The notes below the pieces were generated by a model. That model saw nothing but the letters and a program-made list of their open reading frames with translations, had not been told where the DNA came from and made no database searches. The translations under genes were made by a program, and so were the position numbers. DNA of 26,180 bases from a virus, in the IMG/VR virus record IMGVR_UViG_3300044591_001040, positions 1-26,180 of that record, one strand, 5' to 3'. Below, one piece after another: positions 14,954 to 25,879 of this stretch; position 1 is the stretch's first letter, and each line of letters begins with the position of its first letter.

Positions 14954-15655
14954 TTATGTTTTGTTGTTGTGTAAATATCCAAATGTTTTTACCAAGTAAT
15001 CCCAATTGCGAGCGCATTTGTTACGTGTGTATTCCCGTACAAGTAACTTTGCGTTGCGCTCTGCTTTTTGTTTTTGCACCTCGGGGCCTTGGTTGTACCC
15101 CAAATGAAATAACATTATTTCGCTATCAGCAAACGCGCCCAAATCGTACGCGCTTTTATCTAGTGTTTCATGACAAATTCCGTCCCATTTGAGCCCCGCG
15201 CTTTTGCGGTGTAAACGCATGTTCGCATTTATGTAACGTTCCGCGCGTCCGCTTTTGTTTACCCCGTCCATGATACCATAAACGGAAACATACGACGCGG
15301 GGGCGTCGGTCTCATGTAATGCCTCTAAAAACGCCCATAAATCCCCGTGGGGCGTCGTTAGGCGTTCGTCCGCATCTATATGCAAAATCCACTCACCACG
15401 GGCGTACGCGTCCAATGTATTTCGCAAATATGCAAAATCAAATTGTTCCGAAAAATCATTGTAACGCCAAACCAAACCCGTTAATAATTCAGTATCACCA
15501 ACCACGTTTAACACGGGTTCCGTAACCGCGTCGGTTTGCTCCGTCCTGAGAGCTACAATTTGTACTTTATGTTTGGCGGTGGTTTTTGGTAATGCCATAC
15601 GCCACGCCATTAAATCGTCGTCATTAGTGTATAGTACGCAAATGCTCAAATACAT
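14954..15655 (-). CDS. Family 2 glycosyltransferase (GT-A fold)
   Basis: This 233-residue protein starts MYLSICVLYTNDD, a short GT2-like opening. Its core reads FDFAYLRNTLDAYARGEWIL then HIDADERL, with the metal-binding DxD at Asp94 and Asp96. A later R-L-H-R ... G-I-C-H-E motif (about 147-163) corresponds to the acceptor-side HE of this subgroup. Such enzymes transfer a sugar from a nucleotide sugar to a protein, lipid or glycan. The gene starts directly after a tail-completion gene (stop and start adjacent, GGAGCA ribosome site). It ends 11 bases before the major tail protein. Co-expression with capsid and tail genes suggests virion glycosylation, which is an inference. Confidence 0.85.
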   Translation of the reverse strand: MYLSICVLYTNDDDLMAWRMALPKTTAKHKVQIVALRTEQTDAVTEPVLNVVGDTELLTGLVWRYNDFSEQFDFAYLRNTLDAYARGEWILHIDADERLTTPHGDLWAFLEALHETDAPASYVSVYGIMDGVNKSGRAERYINANMRLHRKSAGLKWDGICHETLDKSAYDLGAFADSEIMLFHLGYNQGPEVQKQKAERNAKLLVREYTRNKCARNWDYLVKTFGYLHNNKT

Positions 15656-17362: not shown

Positions 17363-18562
17363 TTAGGTTGCACTTGTTTTCAATACGCCAATTGCCGTTG
17401 GTGCGGGGAACGCAATACCGATGCGCTCGACAACCTCGATACCTTTTTGGTGTGTTCCGCCCAATCCTGTGGCGCCAAAATACTCCTTGTATTCGTTAAC
17501 CATAATATCCTCGCGAATACCAAGAATTGAGAACTGTGCAAAATCAGCATATAACGCACAACCTTTGTTCGCGGCGCTTGTTGGGAACAATGAGTCGGGG
17601 ACAACGTGCATAGGGCGGCCAAATGGCGTTACGTATGTGTTACCCTCCAATGCTGTTAAGCCAATTGCGGGAATATCCATAGGCTGTAATTGGTTCCATA
17701 TTGGGCGGTCTTGTTGGTCCATTTCCTTGATAATGTGACCGAATACGCTTTGCGGAACAACAAATACGCCGTTTGCGCCAACTGTGGAATTAAGGGACAA
17801 ACGTAAATTAATTAGGTCGGTCCATGAAATTGCGGAAAACGCTGTTTTACCACTGTTAGACGCACCGCCCAAATATGTTACAGTCGAACCGGAAATATTC
17901 AATGCGCCTGTGAAATTTGGAGCGGTACCGTTTCCATTAAAAAATTGTTCGTCCTCTTTGCCCGCAATGGCACGGCCCAAACCGTTCGTTACATAATCCA
18001 AAAATGCGGGGGTTGCGTCCTCTAATTGTTCAATTGAAAGGATAGCGCCGCCCACTACTTTTTGGCTTTGCAATGTGGTTTGTGTAAAAAAGTTTGCGGA
18101 GTCTGTGACTGTTAAACCTGAGCCCTCGGCTACAACGGCCGCGGTGAAATTACCACTTGACGCCAAATACTCTTTGTTACCTCTCATTGGGTAAATCTTA
18201 GCAAGGGCACGAGCGTAACCGAAACGGTCCGCAAAATTCATAATTTCCTCAACCCAAAACGCGGGGACAACCGCGCCACCTTGGGCCGTTGTTCCTGTGT
18301 TGAAATTTGCACGGGTAACGTATTTGTTGTTTGCATCACGCGCAATTGACTCAGCGCCCGCGTGGTCGCCTTTGTGCTTTGCGTTAATGTAATCAGAAAT
18401 AACGCGTGCTTGGTCGCGGCGTGCGTCGTGGTCTGCTTTAATCTTAACAAATCCCGTTACGTGTGTTGGGTTTGCGTTGCGCAAAATGTCTTGCGCCTTT
18501 TCGTTTGCTTTTGTTTCCACAACCATTTTTAATTGGTCGGGTGTAATTACAATATTTTCCAT
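17363..18562 (-). CDS. Major capsid protein, HK97 fold
   Basis: This 399-residue protein has a charged helical N-terminal part of about 90 residues, the size of an HK97 delta domain that the prohead protease removes. The typical transition GGAVVPAFWVEEI follows (95-107), and then a body with GKEDEQFFNGNG and the terminal GIEVVERIGIAF strand region, all typical of the HK97 phage capsid family. It lies directly after the protease and before the connector. The first base of the start is 18562, with AGAG about 10 bases upstream. The exact cleavage point cannot be read from the sequence, but lies probably near residue 85-95. Confidence 0.93.
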   Translation of the reverse strand: MENIVITPDQLKMVVETKANEKAQDILRNANPTHVTGFVKIKADHDARRDQARVISDYINAKHKGDHAGAESIARDANNKYVTRANFNTGTTAQGGAVVPAFWVEEIMNFADRFGYARALAKIYPMRGNKEYLASSGNFTAAVVAEGSGLTVTDSANFFTQTTLQSQKVVGGAILSIEQLEDATPAFLDYVTNGLGRAIAGKEDEQFFNGNGTAPNFTGALNISGSTVTYLGGASNSGKTAFSAISWTDLINLRLSLNSTVGANGVFVVPQSVFGHIIKEMDQQDRPIWNQLQPMDIPAIGLTALEGNTYVTPFGRPMHVVPDSLFPTSAANKGCALYADFAQFSILGIREDIMVNEYKEYFGATGLGGTHQKGIEVVERIGIAFPAPTAIGVLKTSAT

Positions 18563-18576
18563 TTTTATTTACTCTA

Positions 18577-19584
18577 TTAAATAAGGTTTAACAACTCGTT
18601 ATCAGTTAATTTTTTTGCGGGTTTAATTTCAAATCCGCGGTCCTGAGCAATTGCGTTGGAAATTTTTTTGTTACCCTCTGCAATCATTTGGAGCCCCTCG
18701 GTTATCATGCCATACGTTGTGGCGCTTATCTTTTTGCCCGCTCTGTTTTGATACGACGCCGCTACGGGTGCGGGCTCGTTTTCCGTGGGCATTGGTTCCG
18801 TCGCTACGGGCGCCACAACCTCGGGGGCAACCTCGGGGGCGTCGCCATTTAATACGGCTAACATTGCATCACCCGCCGCCATTGCGCCCGCCTCTGCGGC
18901 TTTAATTGCGTCGTCCTCTGCTATGCCCAACTCGTCACGTAAAAACGTCGTGGCGGCCTCAATGAGCACGGGCATAAATTGCTCACTTAACGCCGTTGTT
19001 TGTTCCGGTGTCAACATTTTATTTACCTTTTTGGCTTTGTTAAATATGGTTTCTAATTTGCGTTCTGTGTTTGCTTTGTTTACGCTACGTTCCAAACGCT
19101 TTTTTAATAGTGCTTGTCTATTGGCGGGAATACTAACAATAGAAAACTCTACCAATTCTGATTTGGTGTAAAACGTAACCGTTTCGCCGTCCACGTTTTT
19201 CTCCTCCCATTCCGTCGGAATGATACCAACGCTCACGGCGTTTACATATCCGTTACGGACCAAGTCCGCAACCTCACACGCTTCTTCTGTAATTCTGTGT
19301 ATTTGTAGTGTGGCCTCTAAATTTTCGCCATTCATGGCAAACCCCAAACACTTACCAATTGGCCACTCGTCGGCCTCATGTTGGGCCAATACAATTGGGT
19401 TATTTAGGTACGCCGTGTAATCTATTCCACTTGGAACAATCACCGTTCCGTATCTATCAATTTCCGGCGTGGAAACTACAAAAGTGTATATATCTTGCGG
19501 GGCCTCTTTGCCCTCATGTTCGTTACCCTCGTGCCCCTCATAACCGCGGGGTTCAAGTCGGTACGCTCGTTTAATTATTTCCAT
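18577..19584 (-). CDS. HK97-type prohead protease fused to a scaffold-like domain
   Basis: This 335-residue protein has the prohead protease (peptidase U35/S78) core in residues 30-170. It includes VLAQHE with His69, the NAVSVG motif with Ser118, and the ELVEFSIVSIPAN segment (143-155) that ends the fold. It matures the capsid by removing the N-terminal part of the capsid protein. Residues 190-335 are helical, Ala/Glu-rich and Pro-rich, like a fused scaffolding domain. A Gly/Glu/His-rich insert (about 14-29, YEGHEGNEHEGKE) precedes the core and is unusual. The start is set by the ATG at 19584, with AGAG upstream. A possible internal start lies at Met190. Confidence 0.88.
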   Translation of the reverse strand: MEIIKRAYRLEPRGYEGHEGNEHEGKEAPQDIYTFVVSTPEIDRYGTVIVPSGIDYTAYLNNPIVLAQHEADEWPIGKCLGFAMNGENLEATLQIHRITEEACEVADLVRNGYVNAVSVGIIPTEWEEKNVDGETVTFYTKSELVEFSIVSIPANRQALLKKRLERSVNKANTERKLETIFNKAKKVNKMLTPEQTTALSEQFMPVLIEAATTFLRDELGIAEDDAIKAAEAGAMAAGDAMLAVLNGDAPEVAPEVVAPVATEPMPTENEPAPVAASYQNRAGKKISATTYGMITEGLQMIAEGNKKISNAIAQDRGFEIKPAKKLTDNELLNLI

Positions 19585-19608
19585 GTTATTGCGCTCTTTT
19601 TTTGGGTT

Positions 19609-19731
19609 TTATTTTTTAGTCAATTCTTTCTTTATTTCGTCCCGTAATTCCCATAACACAGAGTCGTCCAATACTATTTCAGTTGTTTGCTCTGTGTCTT
19701 CTGTATTATTATTCAATTTCAACTCGCTCAT
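19609..19731 (-). CDS. Small 40-residue acidic protein between portal and protease
   Basis: The ATG at 19731 lies inside the end of the portal gene, in another frame, and the frame ends in TAA at 19609-19611. The product (MSELKLNNNTEDTEQTTEIV, then LDDSVLWELRDEIKKELTKK) is acidic, then helical. The codons past the portal stop read as a coherent protein, and no other frame fits this 120-bp gap. It might be a small scaffold or capsid accessory. The function is unknown. Confidence 0.65.
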   Translation of the reverse strand: MSELKLNNNTEDTEQTTEIVLDDSVLWELRDEIKKELTKK

Positions 19732-22510
19732 AAATCCACCCGTATTTTTTTGCTAATTCTATATTTGCATCATGTATCACCGTGTCGTTAATAAACGCGT
19801 TTGCTTCGTCCACGGTCCACTCGCCATTTTCTATTTTTTCTCTATACATTGGTGTATATTTTTTTACGCCTTGTTTTGTCAGTGCATTCCAATCGCGTTT
19901 TATACTTTTTTCAACTTGCTTTTTTAACGTCCTCCATTCCGGGGAAATTAAACGTATTGGTTCGCCGTTTTCATCTAACACATATTTATTGTTTTCTACT
20001 TTATACGGGTAATAGTAATAGTCTTCGTTAAACCCGTCCTTTGGCCTTTGCATAACGTAGTTATATTTTGGCGTTACGGCTCGCATTTCCGCCCCGTTTG
20101 TGTTTAACGTGTTTGACAAATCGGTGTATGAAAACGAACAATTATCTATGGGGTGGTTATGCGTTGTTATTTCGTTACCTGAGAGTCTTGCAATTTTTAC
20201 CTGTTTTGCATCATGCGTTAACACGCTTGTTTTACGTCCTTTAACCTCACGTAATACATTACCCTCGTAATCCGTGACCATTCCCATTTCATGGGTTTTT
20301 AGGTTTCTATATTTATTCTCAAAATCCGCTATGGCTTTTAATTGTCCGCCACGTCCGCCCGCAATAACACGCGGTAAATTGGAACCGCTCGGAGCATTTG
20401 GCGCGCTTGTTCCTGTGCTTGGTTTTTGGACTGTTACCGTTTCGGTTGTTTGTCTTTGCACGGGGAATAATTGACAACGGCAATTAACCGCCCCGCTTGC
20501 ACTCAGCCCGCCACCTAACGGGCGCTCCGTTTTCTCATAACCAACAATAATTTCACCAACGGCGCCCTCGTCTGTTATTCCTTTCTTCATTACAGGCACG
20601 CTAAAAAATCCGTCGGGGTCAACCTCTTTGCCCTCCATTATTTGGTGGCTTGGCCGTACTCTATTGTCTTGTTCTGTTAACCAAATGTAGGTATAACCCA
20701 AACGCTTATATGTTGCCAATTGTGAACCCGCCGTAACGTTTGCGCTTACCGTGTTTGCAATCGTGCGCAATCTACTTTGGCTGTAAACAGTGTCGAAACG
20801 GTTTGTTAATATACTGAGCAATTCGCTTTTATCTTTCATGGCGTTTGCTTGTATAACCCCCGCCATTTCCGTTTTAATTGTTTCCATGCTCTCAGTAATT
20901 TTGTCCGCGCTCTCACGTGCCAAACCTTGTAACGCTTTGCCGTATTCACCGTCCAACGGTACGGCGTTGCCCTCTAATTGCGTCGCCACGGTTTGGGAAA
21001 CATTGCGGACCGCGTCGTTAATCACGCTTTGTATTTTGTCCGTTGTTTTCTCGTTTAATTCAATACCACTTATTTGCGTTTGTCCGCTATTAACTTTGTC
21101 CGTTATTTTTTTTTTTAATTCGCTTATGGCGGTCGCGGTAACGTCTTCTAATCGTAATTGGTTTTCCGTTGTTAAACCGTCATAATTGCGCCAAAAATCC
21201 GCGCGGGCCTCATTGGTATTGTACGGGAAACTACGACGCGCCACGGGCAATTGTGGGGCGTTTGTGCTTATTTGCGCGGGCTTCGTTTGCGGTTGTCCGC
21301 CCGTTGCCATGTCTAACGGTAAAAACCCTTGAGCAATTAACGGAACGTCGCCATTTTGAACGGGTAAAAATCCACGGTCCGCACGCGCTTCGTTAATTGT
21401 CTTGATACCCCAACGTAATTGGAATTCCTCTTGCTTTAAATCGGCGTCCAAATCTTTGTAAACGTACGGCTCGGGCTCTATTAAAACGTCGTCCTCAAAT
21501 CGTCTAAAATGGCGCGTTAATTCCTCTGCTATGTATAACGCCTCGGGGTCTATTGTGTTTTGTCTAAATATCTGAAATTGAACCTCTGCGGTTGCGCGGT
21601 TTTGAAATTCCCCTGTTAACATGCCCGGGGGCACGCCGAAAACCTGAGCAATTTGTGAACGTGTGTCGGCGCTCACGGCGTCGTAACTTATGGCAAGTTC
21701 ACCCTTTGGCGGTAAGTTTAGTTTCATTCCCCCGTGTAACAACGCACGCAATTTGTATTTTGGTAGGGCTTCATTCCAACCGTTTTTAATCCGTTCCCAT
21801 GTTTCTTGGTCCACGGTGTCGGGGTGCTCTGCAATCAATGGCGGAACGGTATTATTTTCAAATAACCGTTGTAAATACGCACTAACCTCTCTATCTATAT
21901 TCGCATATTCCAACGCCGCGGTTACTAACCCAACGCCTAACATATTCATTCCCACAATTTCCTCCGGGCGTGCGGCGGGGTGAATACGAGCCAAATGGAC
22001 CATTTCACGCTCGGGTATATGTACGTTTCCGTCCTGAGCACTTTGGTATATGTAACCGTCTACAAATTTCTCTGAGCCTTTAATGATGCGTACGCGCGTC
22101 GGGTTTAATACCCACATTTGGAGCGGAACATGATAACCGTTTGTTGGCGTCCAAATAAACGCGTTACCGTTAATAGATAACCAATTTTCAATATAACTGT
22201 AAATCTGAGAGCGCACAAAATACGGGTTTGGGTTTGCTAACAAACGTGCCGCCCAATGGTCCGCGCCCAATTCTGAGCGGTCAAAGTTTTGCTCTTTGAA
22301 CGTATTAAATTTAATTGCACTCAGAGCGTTGGCCCTATGCTGTAAACACGCAAAGACGGTGCCACGTAACGAGGCCTCTGTTTCATTCCCCGCGCTTACG
22401 GAACCAATGTTACGTTGGTTGCCCATACGGTCGTATGGTAACAAACCGCGTTTTTGGCTTGGTAAAATCGCGTCTGAAATCCTTTGTCTAATATCGTCCA
22501 ATATACTCAT
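19709..22510 (-). CDS. Portal protein fused to MuF-type domain and C-terminal JAMM-like domain
   Basis: This 933-residue protein has a complete HK97-type portal in residues 1 to about 400 (for example AQVFGVPPGML and TAEVQFQIFRQNTI). A coiled linker follows. Then comes a MuF-type phage head morphogenesis domain (about 560-685) with YIWLTEQDNRVRPSHQ (608-623) and NCRC (676-679). After a Thr/Pro/Ser/Gly linker (about 690-725) lies a C-terminal domain. This domain contains Glu741 in HEMGMV and HNHP with His784 and His786, then Ser794 and Asp797. The spacing fits the JAMM metalloprotease signature H-x-H-x7-S-x2-D exactly. The portal forms the DNA entry ring; the MuF domain is thought to reside in the head and may be injected. 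The start overlaps the terminase stop as ATGA. The last domain could be a zinc hydrolase; no activity can be proved here. Confidence 0.88.
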   Translation of the reverse strand: MSILDDIRQRISDAILPSQKRGLLPYDRMGNQRNIGSVSAGNETEASLRGTVFACLQHRANALSAIKFNTFKEQNFDRSELGADHWAARLLANPNPYFVRSQIYSYIENWLSINGNAFIWTPTNGYHVPLQMWVLNPTRVRIIKGSEKFVDGYIYQSAQDGNVHIPEREMVHLARIHPAARPEEIVGMNMLGVGLVTAALEYANIDREVSAYLQRLFENNTVPPLIAEHPDTVDQETWERIKNGWNEALPKYKLRALLHGGMKLNLPPKGELAISYDAVSADTRSQIAQVFGVPPGMLTGEFQNRATAEVQFQIFRQNTIDPEALYIAEELTRHFRRFEDDVLIEPEPYVYKDLDADLKQEEFQLRWGIKTINEARADRGFLPVQNGDVPLIAQGFLPLDMATGGQPQTKPAQISTNAPQLPVARRSFPYNTNEARADFWRNYDGLTTENQLRLEDVTATAISELKKKITDKVNSGQTQISGIELNEKTTDKIQSVINDAVRNVSQTVATQLEGNAVPLDGEYGKALQGLARESADKITESMETIKTEMAGVIQANAMKDKSELLSILTNRFDTVYSQSRLRTIANTVSANVTAGSQLATYKRLGYTYIWLTEQDNRVRPSHQIMEGKEVDPDGFFSVPVMKKGITDEGAVGEIIVGYEKTERPLGGGLSASGAVNCRCQLFPVQRQTTETVTVQKPSTGTSAPNAPSGSNLPRVIAGGRGGQLKAIADFENKYRNLKTHEMGMVTDYEGNVLREVKGRKTSVLTHDAKQVKIARLSGNEITTHNHPIDNCSFSYTDLSNTLNTNGAEMRAVTPKYNYVMQRPKDGFNEDYYYYPYKVENNKYVLDENGEPIRLISPEWRTLKKQVEKSIKRDWNALTKQGVKKYTPMYREKIENGEWTVDEANAFINDTVIHDANIELAKKYGWIYERVEIE

Positions 22511-23664
22511 GTAAAAACGCCCGGTGTCTTTTTAATAGATGCAAACGCGTAACCCAATGCGTCCACGTAATCGTCGTGTTTGTCCTGTGCGGTGCCCGTA
22601 AAACTTAATAGCTCCTCTGTAAACTCAGGTGGTAACGTTCCATAATGGAATACCTCACGGCGTTCGTAACGCGCCTCTACGGGCTGAAATCGTATAACTT
22701 TATCACGGTCCGCCCTCATTCCAACCACGTTTAACGTTGTGTTTCGTTTCAATTCTTGGACCAACCACGCTTGGGCTTGGTTGTTCTCTATTGCTATTAC
22801 CTTGGGGTTCCATTTGTTTGCATATTCGATAACCTTTGCCCCAATGTTTACGAACGTCATGCGGTCGCGGAACGCGTCAACAACAACCACCTCTTTGTCC
22901 TCTGTTAACCCAATAACAACCAACGCCGTATAATCCGCCGTCTCTTTTTGACTAATTGCCAAATCCACGCCCATGTAAAACGTAACGGGCTTTTTTGTGT
23001 TGTCAATTTTGAGCCACTCGCGTTTAATCTTTGCGGCCCCTCGGTCCACATACTCGGCTAAATATTCCTGAGCAAAGACAACGCTCGGCAATATGAGCCG
23101 TTGGCGTTCAATTTCCGCATGTTTCATGCGGGGGTTGTCGTATGTGGTATAATGAAAGGACGCCCAATCTGTGTATAAATTACTAAAATTGTCCAACTCA
23201 GAAAAATGGTTTTTGCCATTTGGCGTGGAAAAGAAATAACCGTCGCCCTCATAATCTGTGAGCATTGGGCTTAAAACCTCTTCCCATGCGTTTTGAGCGT
23301 TTTCACAGTACGCCCACTCGTCGCAAATCATGCGGTGAAATGCGTTCCCTCTGAGCCCGTCCGCACGCCATATACCTGTTAACGTGAGCGTGGAACCGTT
23401 CAATGTTATTTCCCCCCATTTGATTGTGGCGCCTAACGGGGTAAACAGTTTAACGGCCTCTTTGTAACGCCCTTGTAATTCTTTGTAACTTGGGGTCGTG
23501 TATAACACATTGGTGCCCGGCTCTTGTAACATTTTTTCGATAGCAAGGGCAAATGCTAAGTAACTTTTGCCAAATCGGCGCCCGCTCCGTACAACGTTAA
23601 AACGTTTGCGGTTGTTTACTATTTCCAATTGCTTAGCGTGTGGCTCTGCTATTACGCGTTTCAC
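22507..23664 (-). CDS. terL: Terminase large subunit
   Basis: This 385-residue protein has a Walker A motif SGRRFGKS (27-34), a Walker B RMICDE (111-116) with catalytic Glu116, and a coupling motif STPNG (146-150). These form the ATPase that drives packaging. The RNase H-like nuclease follows, with Asp234 in MGVDLA, Glu293 in IAIEN and Asp365/Asp368 in HDDYVDA. All essential residues seem present, so it should be active. It overlaps the small subunit stop by 4 bp and the portal start by 4 bp. At 385 residues it is a little shorter than the family average. Confidence 0.95.
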   Translation of the reverse strand: MKRVIAEPHAKQLEIVNNRKRFNVVRSGRRFGKSYLAFALAIEKMLQEPGTNVLYTTPSYKELQGRYKEAVKLFTPLGATIKWGEITLNGSTLTLTGIWRADGLRGNAFHRMICDEWAYCENAQNAWEEVLSPMLTDYEGDGYFFSTPNGKNHFSELDNFSNLYTDWASFHYTTYDNPRMKHAEIERQRLILPSVVFAQEYLAEYVDRGAAKIKREWLKIDNTKKPVTFYMGVDLAISQKETADYTALVVIGLTEDKEVVVVDAFRDRMTFVNIGAKVIEYANKWNPKVIAIENNQAQAWLVQELKRNTTLNVVGMRADRDKVIRFQPVEARYERREVFHYGTLPPEFTEELLSFTGTAQDKHDDYVDALGYAFASIKKTPGVFT

Positions 23665-24558: not shown

Positions 24559-25031
24559 TGCCTTGCGCCCCAAATACCTAGTAACGTACCTAGTGCAAAC
24601 GCCACGGGTCCCCATGTCCACGCGCTGTTATTCTCAGTGGGTACGGGAATTGTTATTGTTTGTACTGAGTCGGGGCGGGGCCTGAATACCAAACTAAAAT
24701 TGGCTTTGCCCTTATTATACGCAAATGCCATATTTACGGTGTCCTTTGTGGTTGTTATCACGCTATCAGCCTGAGCAATAAACGACGTGTCCCCGCATGG
24801 AATGTTTACGGGGCGTTCTATAAAATACGTTGTGTCTTTGTGTTTAACCATTACCGATTTTACGCGCACGGTGTCCCGTACGGTAACGGGGCGTGTTATT
24901 ACGGCCGTAACTGTGTCCCGTGTATGTTTCGTGCCCTGTGGGGCATTACAGCCGCGTCCAAGGTGAACGCCTAACAATAAACACAACCCGCCAACCATTA
25001 TGAGCGTAACGCCATAGATATTTAGTTTCAT
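24555..25031 (-). CDS. Membrane protein with two terminal helices, possible lysis accessory
   Basis: This 158-residue protein has an N-terminal hydrophobic helix (about 5-24, IYGVTLIMVGGLCLLLGVHL). A long polar Thr/Asp/Val-rich middle follows, with repeated DTV/DTVRV segments (about 35-105). A second hydrophobic helix lies at the C terminus (about 137-156, GPVAFALGTLLGIWGA). This topology places the middle outside the inner membrane. The DTV repeats resemble a family of Bacteroides-phage proteins (DUF6808-like, from memory). It could be a spanin-type or holin-associated protein, but there is no lipobox and no endolysin neighbour in the window. It overlaps both neighbours by 4 bp. Confidence 0.6.
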   Translation of the reverse strand: MKLNIYGVTLIMVGGLCLLLGVHLGRGCNAPQGTKHTRDTVTAVITRPVTVRDTVRVKSVMVKHKDTTYFIERPVNIPCGDTSFIAQADSVITTTKDTVNMAFAYNKGKANFSLVFRPRPDSVQTITIPVPTENNSAWTWGPVAFALGTLLGIWGARQ

Positions 25032-25879
25032 TCCACAACCCCGTTATTAATCCACATATTGCGTACCGCTCCGTCCGCTTGGACAATTGCAAATCCATGG
25101 TTACTATTGCTATGGGGCATGTAACCTTGGCGTAACTTGCATAAACAACCCGTGGTGTATGTTTTAATGTATTTACCGCCCAATCCCCTACCATGTGAGA
25201 AACTTGTGCGGTGAACGTGTCCCATTACGGTTGTTTCTAATGTTTTGAGCAATAACGCGCGTGCGGGGTTAACGCCCCCACCCACTTTTACCTCGTGCCC
25301 ATGAATTATATGGGTGTCCGCCACTCTCATAAATTGCGACGTTTCCGCAAACTCTATGCCAACGTCCGTTAAATTCAGTAACTTTGTCCAATCTACAATG
25401 CCCGCCAATTCCTGAGCGTTTGCCATTAAATACGCTTCTAGTCTGTCCTCATGGTTGCCCGCTTTGAATATAATACGGGCGCTCGGGAAATCAGCGCGTA
25501 AACCGCGTAAAAATGGTTTCACCATTTCGAGCTCGTCTAAAAACTTTGGCATATTTGGGTTTTTCGGGTGTCTTGATATACGGGCTCCGTCCAATATATC
25601 CCCGTTCAAAACTATATTTTCCACTTGTTCCGAGCGTGCATATTGGACCGCCGCAATTACCGCCTGCTTATCATGTATTCCGAAATGAATATCAGATAAC
25701 ACGGCGGTTTTCCCCTCTAATTTAATAGGGGGCGCAACCTCGTCGCGTCCGTCGGGCATTTCCGCCAAATAATCAGGAACGGCCGTATATGCCAAACCGT
25801 TACGCCTGTGTAAAACGCGTTCGTACTCGTCGCGCGTCACCTTGGGGCGTATAAAATCGTTTATTTGTTTTTTAGCCAT
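25028..25879 (-). CDS. Calcineurin-like metallophosphoesterase
   Basis: This 283-residue protein contains the complete metallophosphoesterase motif set: SDIHFG (Asp63, His65), NGDILDG (Asp94), GNHED (Asn142, His143), HGHEV (His193) and GHVHR (His221, His223). These bind two metals and hydrolyse phosphoesters. It lies in the same operon as the packaging genes. Phages carry such enzymes as protein phosphatases, nucleotidases or DNA-end processors; the substrate is unknown here. The ATG at 25879 overlaps the upstream gene by 8 bp. No signal peptide is seen, so it acts in the cytoplasm. Confidence 0.9.
   Translation of the reverse strand: MAKKQINDFIRPKVTRDEYERVLHRRNGLAYTAVPDYLAEMPDGRDEVAPPIKLEGKTAVLSDIHFGIHDKQAVIAAVQYARSEQVENIVLNGDILDGARISRHPKNPNMPKFLDELEMVKPFLRGLRADFPSARIIFKAGNHEDRLEAYLMANAQELAGIVDWTKLLNLTDVGIEFAETSQFMRVADTHIIHGHEVKVGGGVNPARALLLKTLETTVMGHVHRTSFSHGRGLGGKYIKTYTTGCLCKLRQGYMPHSNSNHGFAIVQADGAVRNMWINNGVVE

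What the first reader, a model, noticed from the sequence alone, without database searches (positions are those of the whole stretch)
19709..20320. JAMM metalloprotease signature at the C terminus of a portal-MuF fusion
Seen: after the portal and MuF regions, residues 720-933 include Glu741, then H-N-H-P with His784 and His786, Ser794 and Asp797. The spacing H-x-H-P-x6-S-x2-D is the exact JAMM/RadC signature, with a Glu 43 residues ahead. Known: JAMM proteins include deubiquitinases and the CBASS Cap3 protease, and MuF C-terminal domains are variable and often toxin-like. Inference: a zinc isopeptidase carried in the virion and perhaps delivered with the DNA could cleave host ubiquitin-like conjugates made by antiphage systems (Bil, type II CBASS), which are known from Bacteroidota. 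It could also process the head. The full portal-MuF-JAMM fusion is unusual to me.
Basis: partly seen in the sequence, partly recalled or inferred. Interest (0 to 1): 0.82.

Follow-up and report, generated by a model that had tools for sequence, protein, structure and literature searches.

The report
Swappable JAMM effector cassette on phage portal
A bacterial virus carries a zinc-enzyme (JAMM/RadC-like) domain fused to the protein at its DNA gateway, and that domain plus a tiny partner gene next to it form one removable, exchangeable unit, which looks like a weapon delivered with the DNA and its safety catch rather than a head-building part.

Summary
The 933-aa portal-MuF protein (22510..19712, -) ends in a domain with Glu741, His784, His786, Ser794 and Asp797 exactly as stated. 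Without templates it folds into something whose best PDB matches are RadC (probability 0.99) and Pyrococcus JAMM1 (0.93). It belongs to a large uncharacterised phage family with no Pfam or NCBIfam model.

The JAMM half and a 40-aa ORF overlapping its stop (19731..19609, -) form an 852-bp cassette, 19608-20459. In L003 (about 94% identical over ~25 kb) the single non-homologous block is the JAMM C-terminal part plus this ORF. In L245, L246 and L248, with 87-96% identical flanks, both are cleanly absent. A coupled small ORF follows 124 of 135 family JAMM genes, against 38% of control genes. Many partners share a short motif, PhixPhi-D-[D/G/E].

Best reading: an accessory, capsid-carried JAMM hydrolase effector with a cognate small partner, probably an inhibitor, in the style of MuF polymorphic toxins. 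A head-maturation role is disfavoured. Action on ubiquitin-like conjugates is possible but unsupported; RadC is the nearest fold. Catalysis, delivery, inhibition and substrate are all untested.

The parts
19712..22510 (-). portal-MuF-JAMM protein, 933 aa (19709 if the stop codon is counted)
21380..22360 (-). portal domain (residues 51-377, PF04860)
20468..20800 (-). MuF domain (residues 571-681, PF04233)
19608..20459 (-). accessory cassette: linker + JAMM domain + small ORF; absent in L245/L246/L248
20354..20467 (-). flexible T/S/P/G-rich linker between MuF and JAMM (residues 682-719); possible release site (inference)
   Evidence: sequence
19712..20353 (-). JAMM/RadC-like domain (residues 720-933)
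   Evidence: AF2 pLDDT 85; Foldseek RadC and JAMM1; BFVD RadC/MPN/JAB entries
20288..20290 (-). Glu741, predicted catalytic Glu
20153..20161 (-). His784-Asn785-His786, predicted Zn ligands
20120..20131 (-). Ser794-x-x-Asp797, Asp predicted Zn ligand
19591..20229 (-). the single non-homologous block against L003: JAMM C-terminal part plus small ORF
19609..19731 (-). small overlapping ORF, 40 aa, acidic (pI 4.4), MSELKLNNNTEDTEQTTEIVLDDSVLWELRDEIKKELTKK; putative cognate partner
18577..19584 (-). S78 prohead protease, next gene
17363..18562 (-). major capsid protein
22507..23664 (-). terminase large subunit

Best explanation
The C-terminal domain is a JAMM-fold, RadC-like zinc hydrolase carried as an accessory effector on the portal-MuF protein. 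It is encoded with a small, translationally coupled cognate protein, and the pair is gained, lost and exchanged as one cassette, as in MuF polymorphic toxins. Shown by sequence: the fold match, the intact Glu/His/His/Ser/Asp set, the cassette borders, co-absence and co-replacement of JAMM and small ORF, faster divergence of JAMM than of MuF, and the recurrent coupled partner in distant relatives. Inferred: the enzyme rides in the capsid, may be freed at the linker, reaches the newly infected cell with the DNA and cleaves a host target, while the small partner (perhaps through its PhixPhi-D-D/G motif) keeps it silent in the producing cell. The substrate is unknown: peptide or isopeptide bonds, or a RadC-like nucleic-acid or nucleotide target.
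For: Fold: AF2 pLDDT 85, PDB top hits RadC 2qlc and PfJAMM1; a second family member gives RadC again; BFVD neighbours include phage minor capsid proteins and RadC/MPN/JAB entries; sub-threshold RadC Pfam hits in L003 and L050. Accessory cassette: precise empty site in L245, L246 and L248 with 87-96% flank identity and no small ORF, no JAMM elsewhere in those records. Exchange: 98-100% identity to about residue 740, then 4-52% per 25-residue window, the small ORF replaced too, and nothing else non-homologous in ~25 kb. Generality: coupled small ORF after 110/121 + 14/14 JAMM genes against 258/683 control genes; motif in 44/110 partners against 11.8 in shuffles, 24/258 control ORFs, and 11/14 held-out against 1.5 in shuffles. 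JAMM diverges more than MuF in 86 of 87 close pairs. The Dorea phage lineage repeats this: MuF-JAMM plus a 46-aa overlapping gene, while relatives A403 and 9874 have short MuF and no such gene. Jamet et al. found small ORFs after 89.4% of MuF toxin genes but 25.5% of short MuF genes (PMC5576092).
Against: No activity, toxicity, packaging or inhibition is shown. The partner families are diverse, and one (Cys-rich, phrog_33375) also follows MuF effectors with unrelated enzyme domains, which fits a loader or chaperone as well as an inhibitor. AF2 of a JAMM-partner read-through showed no confident docking: the motif stretch has the lowest pLDDT, about 71. Portal fusion would hold the enzyme in the capsid wall unless it is cleaved. 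No lysogeny gene was noticed in the L003 record, so lysogen immunity need not apply.
Confidence: 0.55

Rival explanations
1. Same effector, but the small partner is a chaperone or loading factor needed to fold the JAMM domain or pack it into the procapsid, not an inhibitor.
For: One Cys-rich partner family serves JAMM, HExxH and ART-like MuF effectors; AF2 does not dock the motif at the active site.
Against: MuF is nearly identical in window and L003 while JAMM and partner change together, so specificity is towards the JAMM domain. Among Cys-rich partners the IDD/IDK-type motif is nearly constant next to JAMM and mostly missing next to other effectors (by inspection).
Confidence: 0.2
2. The JAMM removes ubiquitin-like modifiers placed on host or phage proteins by antiphage systems (Bil, type II CBASS): an anti-defence isopeptidase.
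For: JAMM fold with an intact catalytic set; PfJAMM1 (structure with SAMP2), CSN5, BubCD and STAMBPL1 are among the fold hits; rapid cassette exchange fits an arms race.
Against: Best match is RadC, not a deubiquitinase. No JAB hit in PADLOC. Zhang et al. argue that divergent toxin JABs and RadC lack the ubiquitin-tail groove (PMC3482391). A cognate small partner is not needed for pure anti-defence.
Confidence: 0.12
3. A head-maturation or assembly protease.
For: phrog_595, labelled 'head maturation protease', spans MuF and part of the JAMM and matches 29 of 58 members; few relatives' records hold an S78 protease (5 of 50, many fragments).
Against: The window phage has its own S78 protease next door. 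Relatives with 87-96% identical head genes lack the JAMM entirely. MuF relatives in a second lineage have a short MuF and a scaffold gene. The domain is swapped while capsid genes stay constant.
Confidence: 0.05
4. An inactive or structural JAMM domain, for example a DNA or portal contact.
For: JAMM folds include inactive MPN- members (general knowledge).
Against: Glu741 conserved in 56/58 members without selection for it; both window and L003 alleles keep every catalytic position while the rest diverges.
Confidence: 0.06

Closest known systems
MuF polymorphic toxins (Jamet et al. 2017, PMC5576092)
   Same: MuF head protein with exchangeable C-terminal enzyme domain; small ORF directly downstream in 89.4% of toxin genes
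   Different: Main text does not mention JAB; the 20% metallopeptidases it reports were not identified here (supplement not readable); here the MuF is also fused to the portal; toxicity untested; lifestyle unknown
RadC (PF04002), including RadC domains of polyvalent proteins (PMC5512222)
   Same: Best structural match; HNHP...S..D motif; known in phage-carried polyvalent proteins
   Different: Pfam RadC is below its cut-off; different C-terminal helices and final strand; located on a MuF/portal protein with a coupled partner
Tox-JAB-1 and Tox-JAB-2/DUF4329 (Zhang et al. 2012, PMC3482391)
   Same: JAB domains used as toxin modules with immunity proteins (Imm65, Imm-NTF2-2)
   Different: Those sit on RHS and other secreted toxins; no Pfam hit to DUF4329; partners here are unrelated small proteins
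CBASS Cap3, Bil/Bub JABs, PfJAMM1
   Same: JAMM fold and catalytic set; PfJAMM1 and BubCD appear among fold hits
   Different: Cellular de-conjugases; no JAB hit in PADLOC
phrog_595 'head maturation protease'
   Same: Profile covers MuF plus part of the JAMM domain; half of the sampled members match
   Different: The label is a functional guess not supported here

Membership tests
JAMM/MPN+ metalloenzyme | E ... HxHP-x(n)-S-x2-D zinc motif | tested here: met
   some relatives have 5 or about 17 residues instead of 6 between P and S
JAMM/MPN+ metalloenzyme | JAMM (cytidine-deaminase-like) fold | tested here: met
   AF2 plus Foldseek: RadC prob 0.99, PfJAMM1 0.93; E-values only 1e-3 to 1e-2 and TM (target) 0.45-0.48
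JAMM/MPN+ metalloenzyme | zinc-dependent hydrolase activity | not testable with these tools
   needs biochemistry
RadC family (PF04002) | Pfam RadC above gathering score | tested here: not met
   no RadC match for the window; L003 14.5-15.4 bits and L050 14.7 against 22.1
MuF polymorphic toxin | MuF domain near portal/terminase genes with a C-terminal extension over 100 aa | tested here: met
MuF polymorphic toxin | exchangeable C-terminal domain on a constant MuF | tested here: met
MuF polymorphic toxin | small immunity-like ORF directly downstream, tied to the toxin domain | tested here: met
   presence, absence and exchange together; 124/135 against 38% in controls. That it confers immunity is untested
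MuF polymorphic toxin | toxic activity of the C-terminal domain | not testable with these tools
   needs expression assay
Cap3/Bil-type de-conjugase | match to defence-system JAB models | tested here: not met
   PADLOC: no hit for five members, an unrelated weak HORMA hit for one
head maturation protease | required for head assembly in its phage group | tested here: not met
   absent from close relatives with the same head genes; S78 protease present

The most novel reading that the evidence does not exclude
A widespread class of capsid-carried JAMM enzymes, each paired with a tiny dedicated partner from one of several unrelated small-protein families that share one short motif (PhixPhi-D-D/G) docking to the JAMM active site: a convergent inhibitor code controlling virion-delivered isopeptidases aimed at bacterial ubiquitin-like immunity.
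Probability: 0.1. Interest if true: 0.9.

Novelty: new variant of a known kind. Interest (0 to 1): 0.64.

Why it matters
It adds a large enzyme class with no Pfam or NCBIfam model to the proteins phages may inject with their DNA, and links it to previously overlooked tiny partner genes. Natural phages that differ almost only by presence, absence or allele of this cassette allow a clean test of what a capsid-carried effector does. It also argues against reading this architecture as a head protease, which the PHROG label suggests.

Tried and rejected
Pfam, NCBIfam, PDB sequence and PADLOC searches of the domain gave no JAB model above cut-off; the QacR-like TetR_C_5 hit falls on the helical tail, and that hit and the Na/H-antiporter hit were rejected as chance or composition matches. 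Two scans of 84,980 species genomes with the window family's peptides confirmed no relative, a weak negative because the patterns were narrow. One viral scan was wasted by a pattern one base short (corrected). An MSA that misplaced the partner rows was discarded. Modelling JAMM and partner as a read-through of L225 gave well-folded parts but no confident docking. The idea that the Cys-rich small protein is JAMM-specific was rejected by the reciprocal scan. The hhalign match to a RadC domain (prob 93.5) is partly circular, since that record had been fetched with the family's own motif.

Full report
Observation. The gene 22510..19712 (-) encodes 933 aa: portal (51-377), MuF (571-681), a T/S/P/G-rich linker, then a domain with Glu741, H784-N-H786-P, Ser794 and Asp797. 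The motif appears in 2 of 200,000 shuffles of the region. The window is an IMG/VR virus record; host and lifestyle are unknown.

Fold. Sequence libraries give no JAB model for the window. An alignment of 76 sequences (window plus viral loci) gave an AlphaFold2 model at pLDDT 85. Foldseek against the PDB ranks RadC 2qlc first (probability 0.98-0.99), then Pyrococcus JAMM1 (0.93), with CSN5, BubCD and STAMBPL1 below. E-values are modest (1e-3 to 1e-1) and TM-scores by target about 0.46, so this is remote homology of the core; the helical tail is extra. A second member (L225) again finds RadC. The viral library returns phage 'minor capsid protein' entries and RadC, MPN and JAB entries. Two relatives give sub-threshold Pfam RadC hits.

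Family. Capped pattern scans of viral contigs gave 144 distinct members. The HNHP, F, S and D columns were in the pattern; Glu741 (56/58), Gly750 (58/58), Gly758, Val763 and Tyr927 were not, and are conserved too. Of 58 members scanned, 26 hit Phage_Mu_F, 8 Phage_min_cap2 and 4 Phage_portal; some are stand-alone genes, such as Aphanizomenon phage CL131 gp044. Only three of 50,697 named phage records were found to hold the domain, with four different queries.

Cassette. In L003 (record G001) the window aligns at about 93-95% DNA identity over ~25 kb, with a single gap in homology, window 19591-20229. In the protein, identity is 98-100% to about residue 740 and then falls to 4-52% per 25 residues, with the catalytic set kept. 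The gap also takes in a small ORF that overlaps the JAMM stop: 40 aa in the window (19731..19609), 39 aa in L002 and L003, both acidic, unrelated apart from a short hydrophobic-DD stretch. Closer still to a natural knock-out, L245, L246 and L248 have portal-MuF proteins ending at CRCQLFPVKR; homology stops at window 20460 and resumes at about 19607, so JAMM and small ORF are both absent between flanks of 87-92% and 94-96% identity. No JAMM was found elsewhere in those records. More distant relatives L249 and L252 also end there. The pair is therefore an accessory unit that head assembly in this group does not seem to need.

Partner gene in other phages. A same-strand ORF of up to 140 aa starting within -40..+30 of the JAMM stop follows 110/121 family genes and 14/14 in a later set, against 258/683 (38%) for other long ORFs in the same loci; ORF calls were mechanical. 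The partners fall into several unrelated families: Cys-rich, Lys-rich tail, helical, acidic. A motif hydrophobic-x-hydrophobic-D-[DGE] occurs in 44/110 against 11.8 expected from shuffles (maximum 22 in 500), in 11/14 of the later set (expected 1.5), and in 24/258 control ORFs. The motif was noticed on the first set; the later set contains the window's own cassette (L232) and mostly one lineage, so this is suggestive only. The Cys-rich partner (phrog_33375) is not JAMM-specific: it also follows MuF proteins with other C-termini, for example the HExxH domain of Flavobacterium phage lotta8-2. Next to JAMM it nearly always has an N-terminal [IL]D[DK] stretch; next to other effectors it mostly lacks it (by inspection).

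Second lineage. Dorea phage DO134P1 has MuF-JAMM (WAX12352.1) followed by an annotated, overlapping 46-aa gene (WAX12351.1). MuF relatives in Anoxybacillus phage A403 and Streptococcus phage 9874 are short, with no such gene. A 69%-identical MuF in MT835606 carries another JAMM-like ending (IHNHPGSSVPSMGD) with its own coupled small ORF. Across 87 close pairs the JAMM part is less conserved than the MuF part in 86 (mean 72% against 86%, pairs not independent).

How it most likely works. Jamet et al. report toxin C-termini on MuF proteins, small ORFs after 89.4% of toxin genes against 25.5% of short MuF genes, and Gp7 of SPP1 bound to the portal in the virion (PMC5576092). The staphylococcal phage 80alpha minor capsid protein gp44 acts after ejection (PMC7290940). 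By analogy the JAMM rides in the head and acts in the new host, and the small partner keeps it silent in the cell that makes it. Delivery from a portal fusion would need cleavage, perhaps in the linker, perhaps by the neighbouring S78 protease; this is inference. AlphaFold2 on a JAMM-partner read-through did not dock the partner, so inhibition is unproven.

Substrate. Zhang et al. argue that toxin JABs and RadC lack the ubiquitin-tail groove and may act on nucleic acids (PMC3482391). The RadC-first fold result leans that way, but JAMM1 and BubCD keep a peptidase open.

Verdict. Observation confirmed; interpretation partly supported. The finding is better described as a two-gene, swappable effector cassette: a new variant of MuF polymorphic-toxin-like effectors built on an uncharacterised RadC-like JAMM family.

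Noticed in passing
L001 / L232 (IMGVR_UViG_3300044621_000812, 6367 bp): The contig carries the window's JAMM domain twice in inverted orientation, 100% identical: probably a palindromic assembly artefact.
   Followed up: no
L258 (MT835606.1), MuF C-terminus: A different JAMM-like ending (IHNHPGSSVPSMGD) on a MuF 69% identical to the Dorea phage's, with its own -4-overlapping 58-aa ORF containing YKYDGP.
   Followed up: partly
L253 (Flavobacterium phage lotta8-2 gp028-gp029): Culturable phage whose MuF protein ends in an HExxH metallopeptidase-like domain followed by an overlapping 66-aa Cys-rich ORF: a tractable sister system.
   Followed up: partly
L024 and L020: L024 has two JAMM motifs within one ORF; L020 has three separate JAMM ORFs in one locus.
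   Followed up: no
alignment A2 members: Some JAMM proteins also hit intein/Hint, ART-PolyVal, Ntox50, ParB or XopAD-like models: JAMM as one module of larger polyvalent proteins.
   Followed up: no
window 14954-15655 (-): Glycosyltransferase-like ORF inside the head-tail gene cluster.
   Followed up: no
window 25028-25879 (-): Calcineurin-like phosphoesterase near the terminase genes.
   Followed up: no
L239 / L255 (record G063): RadC domain (Pfam E 4e-12) inside a 3637-aa open frame, bearing THNHPSETFSFSSAD, which bridges classical RadC and this family's motif.
   Followed up: partly
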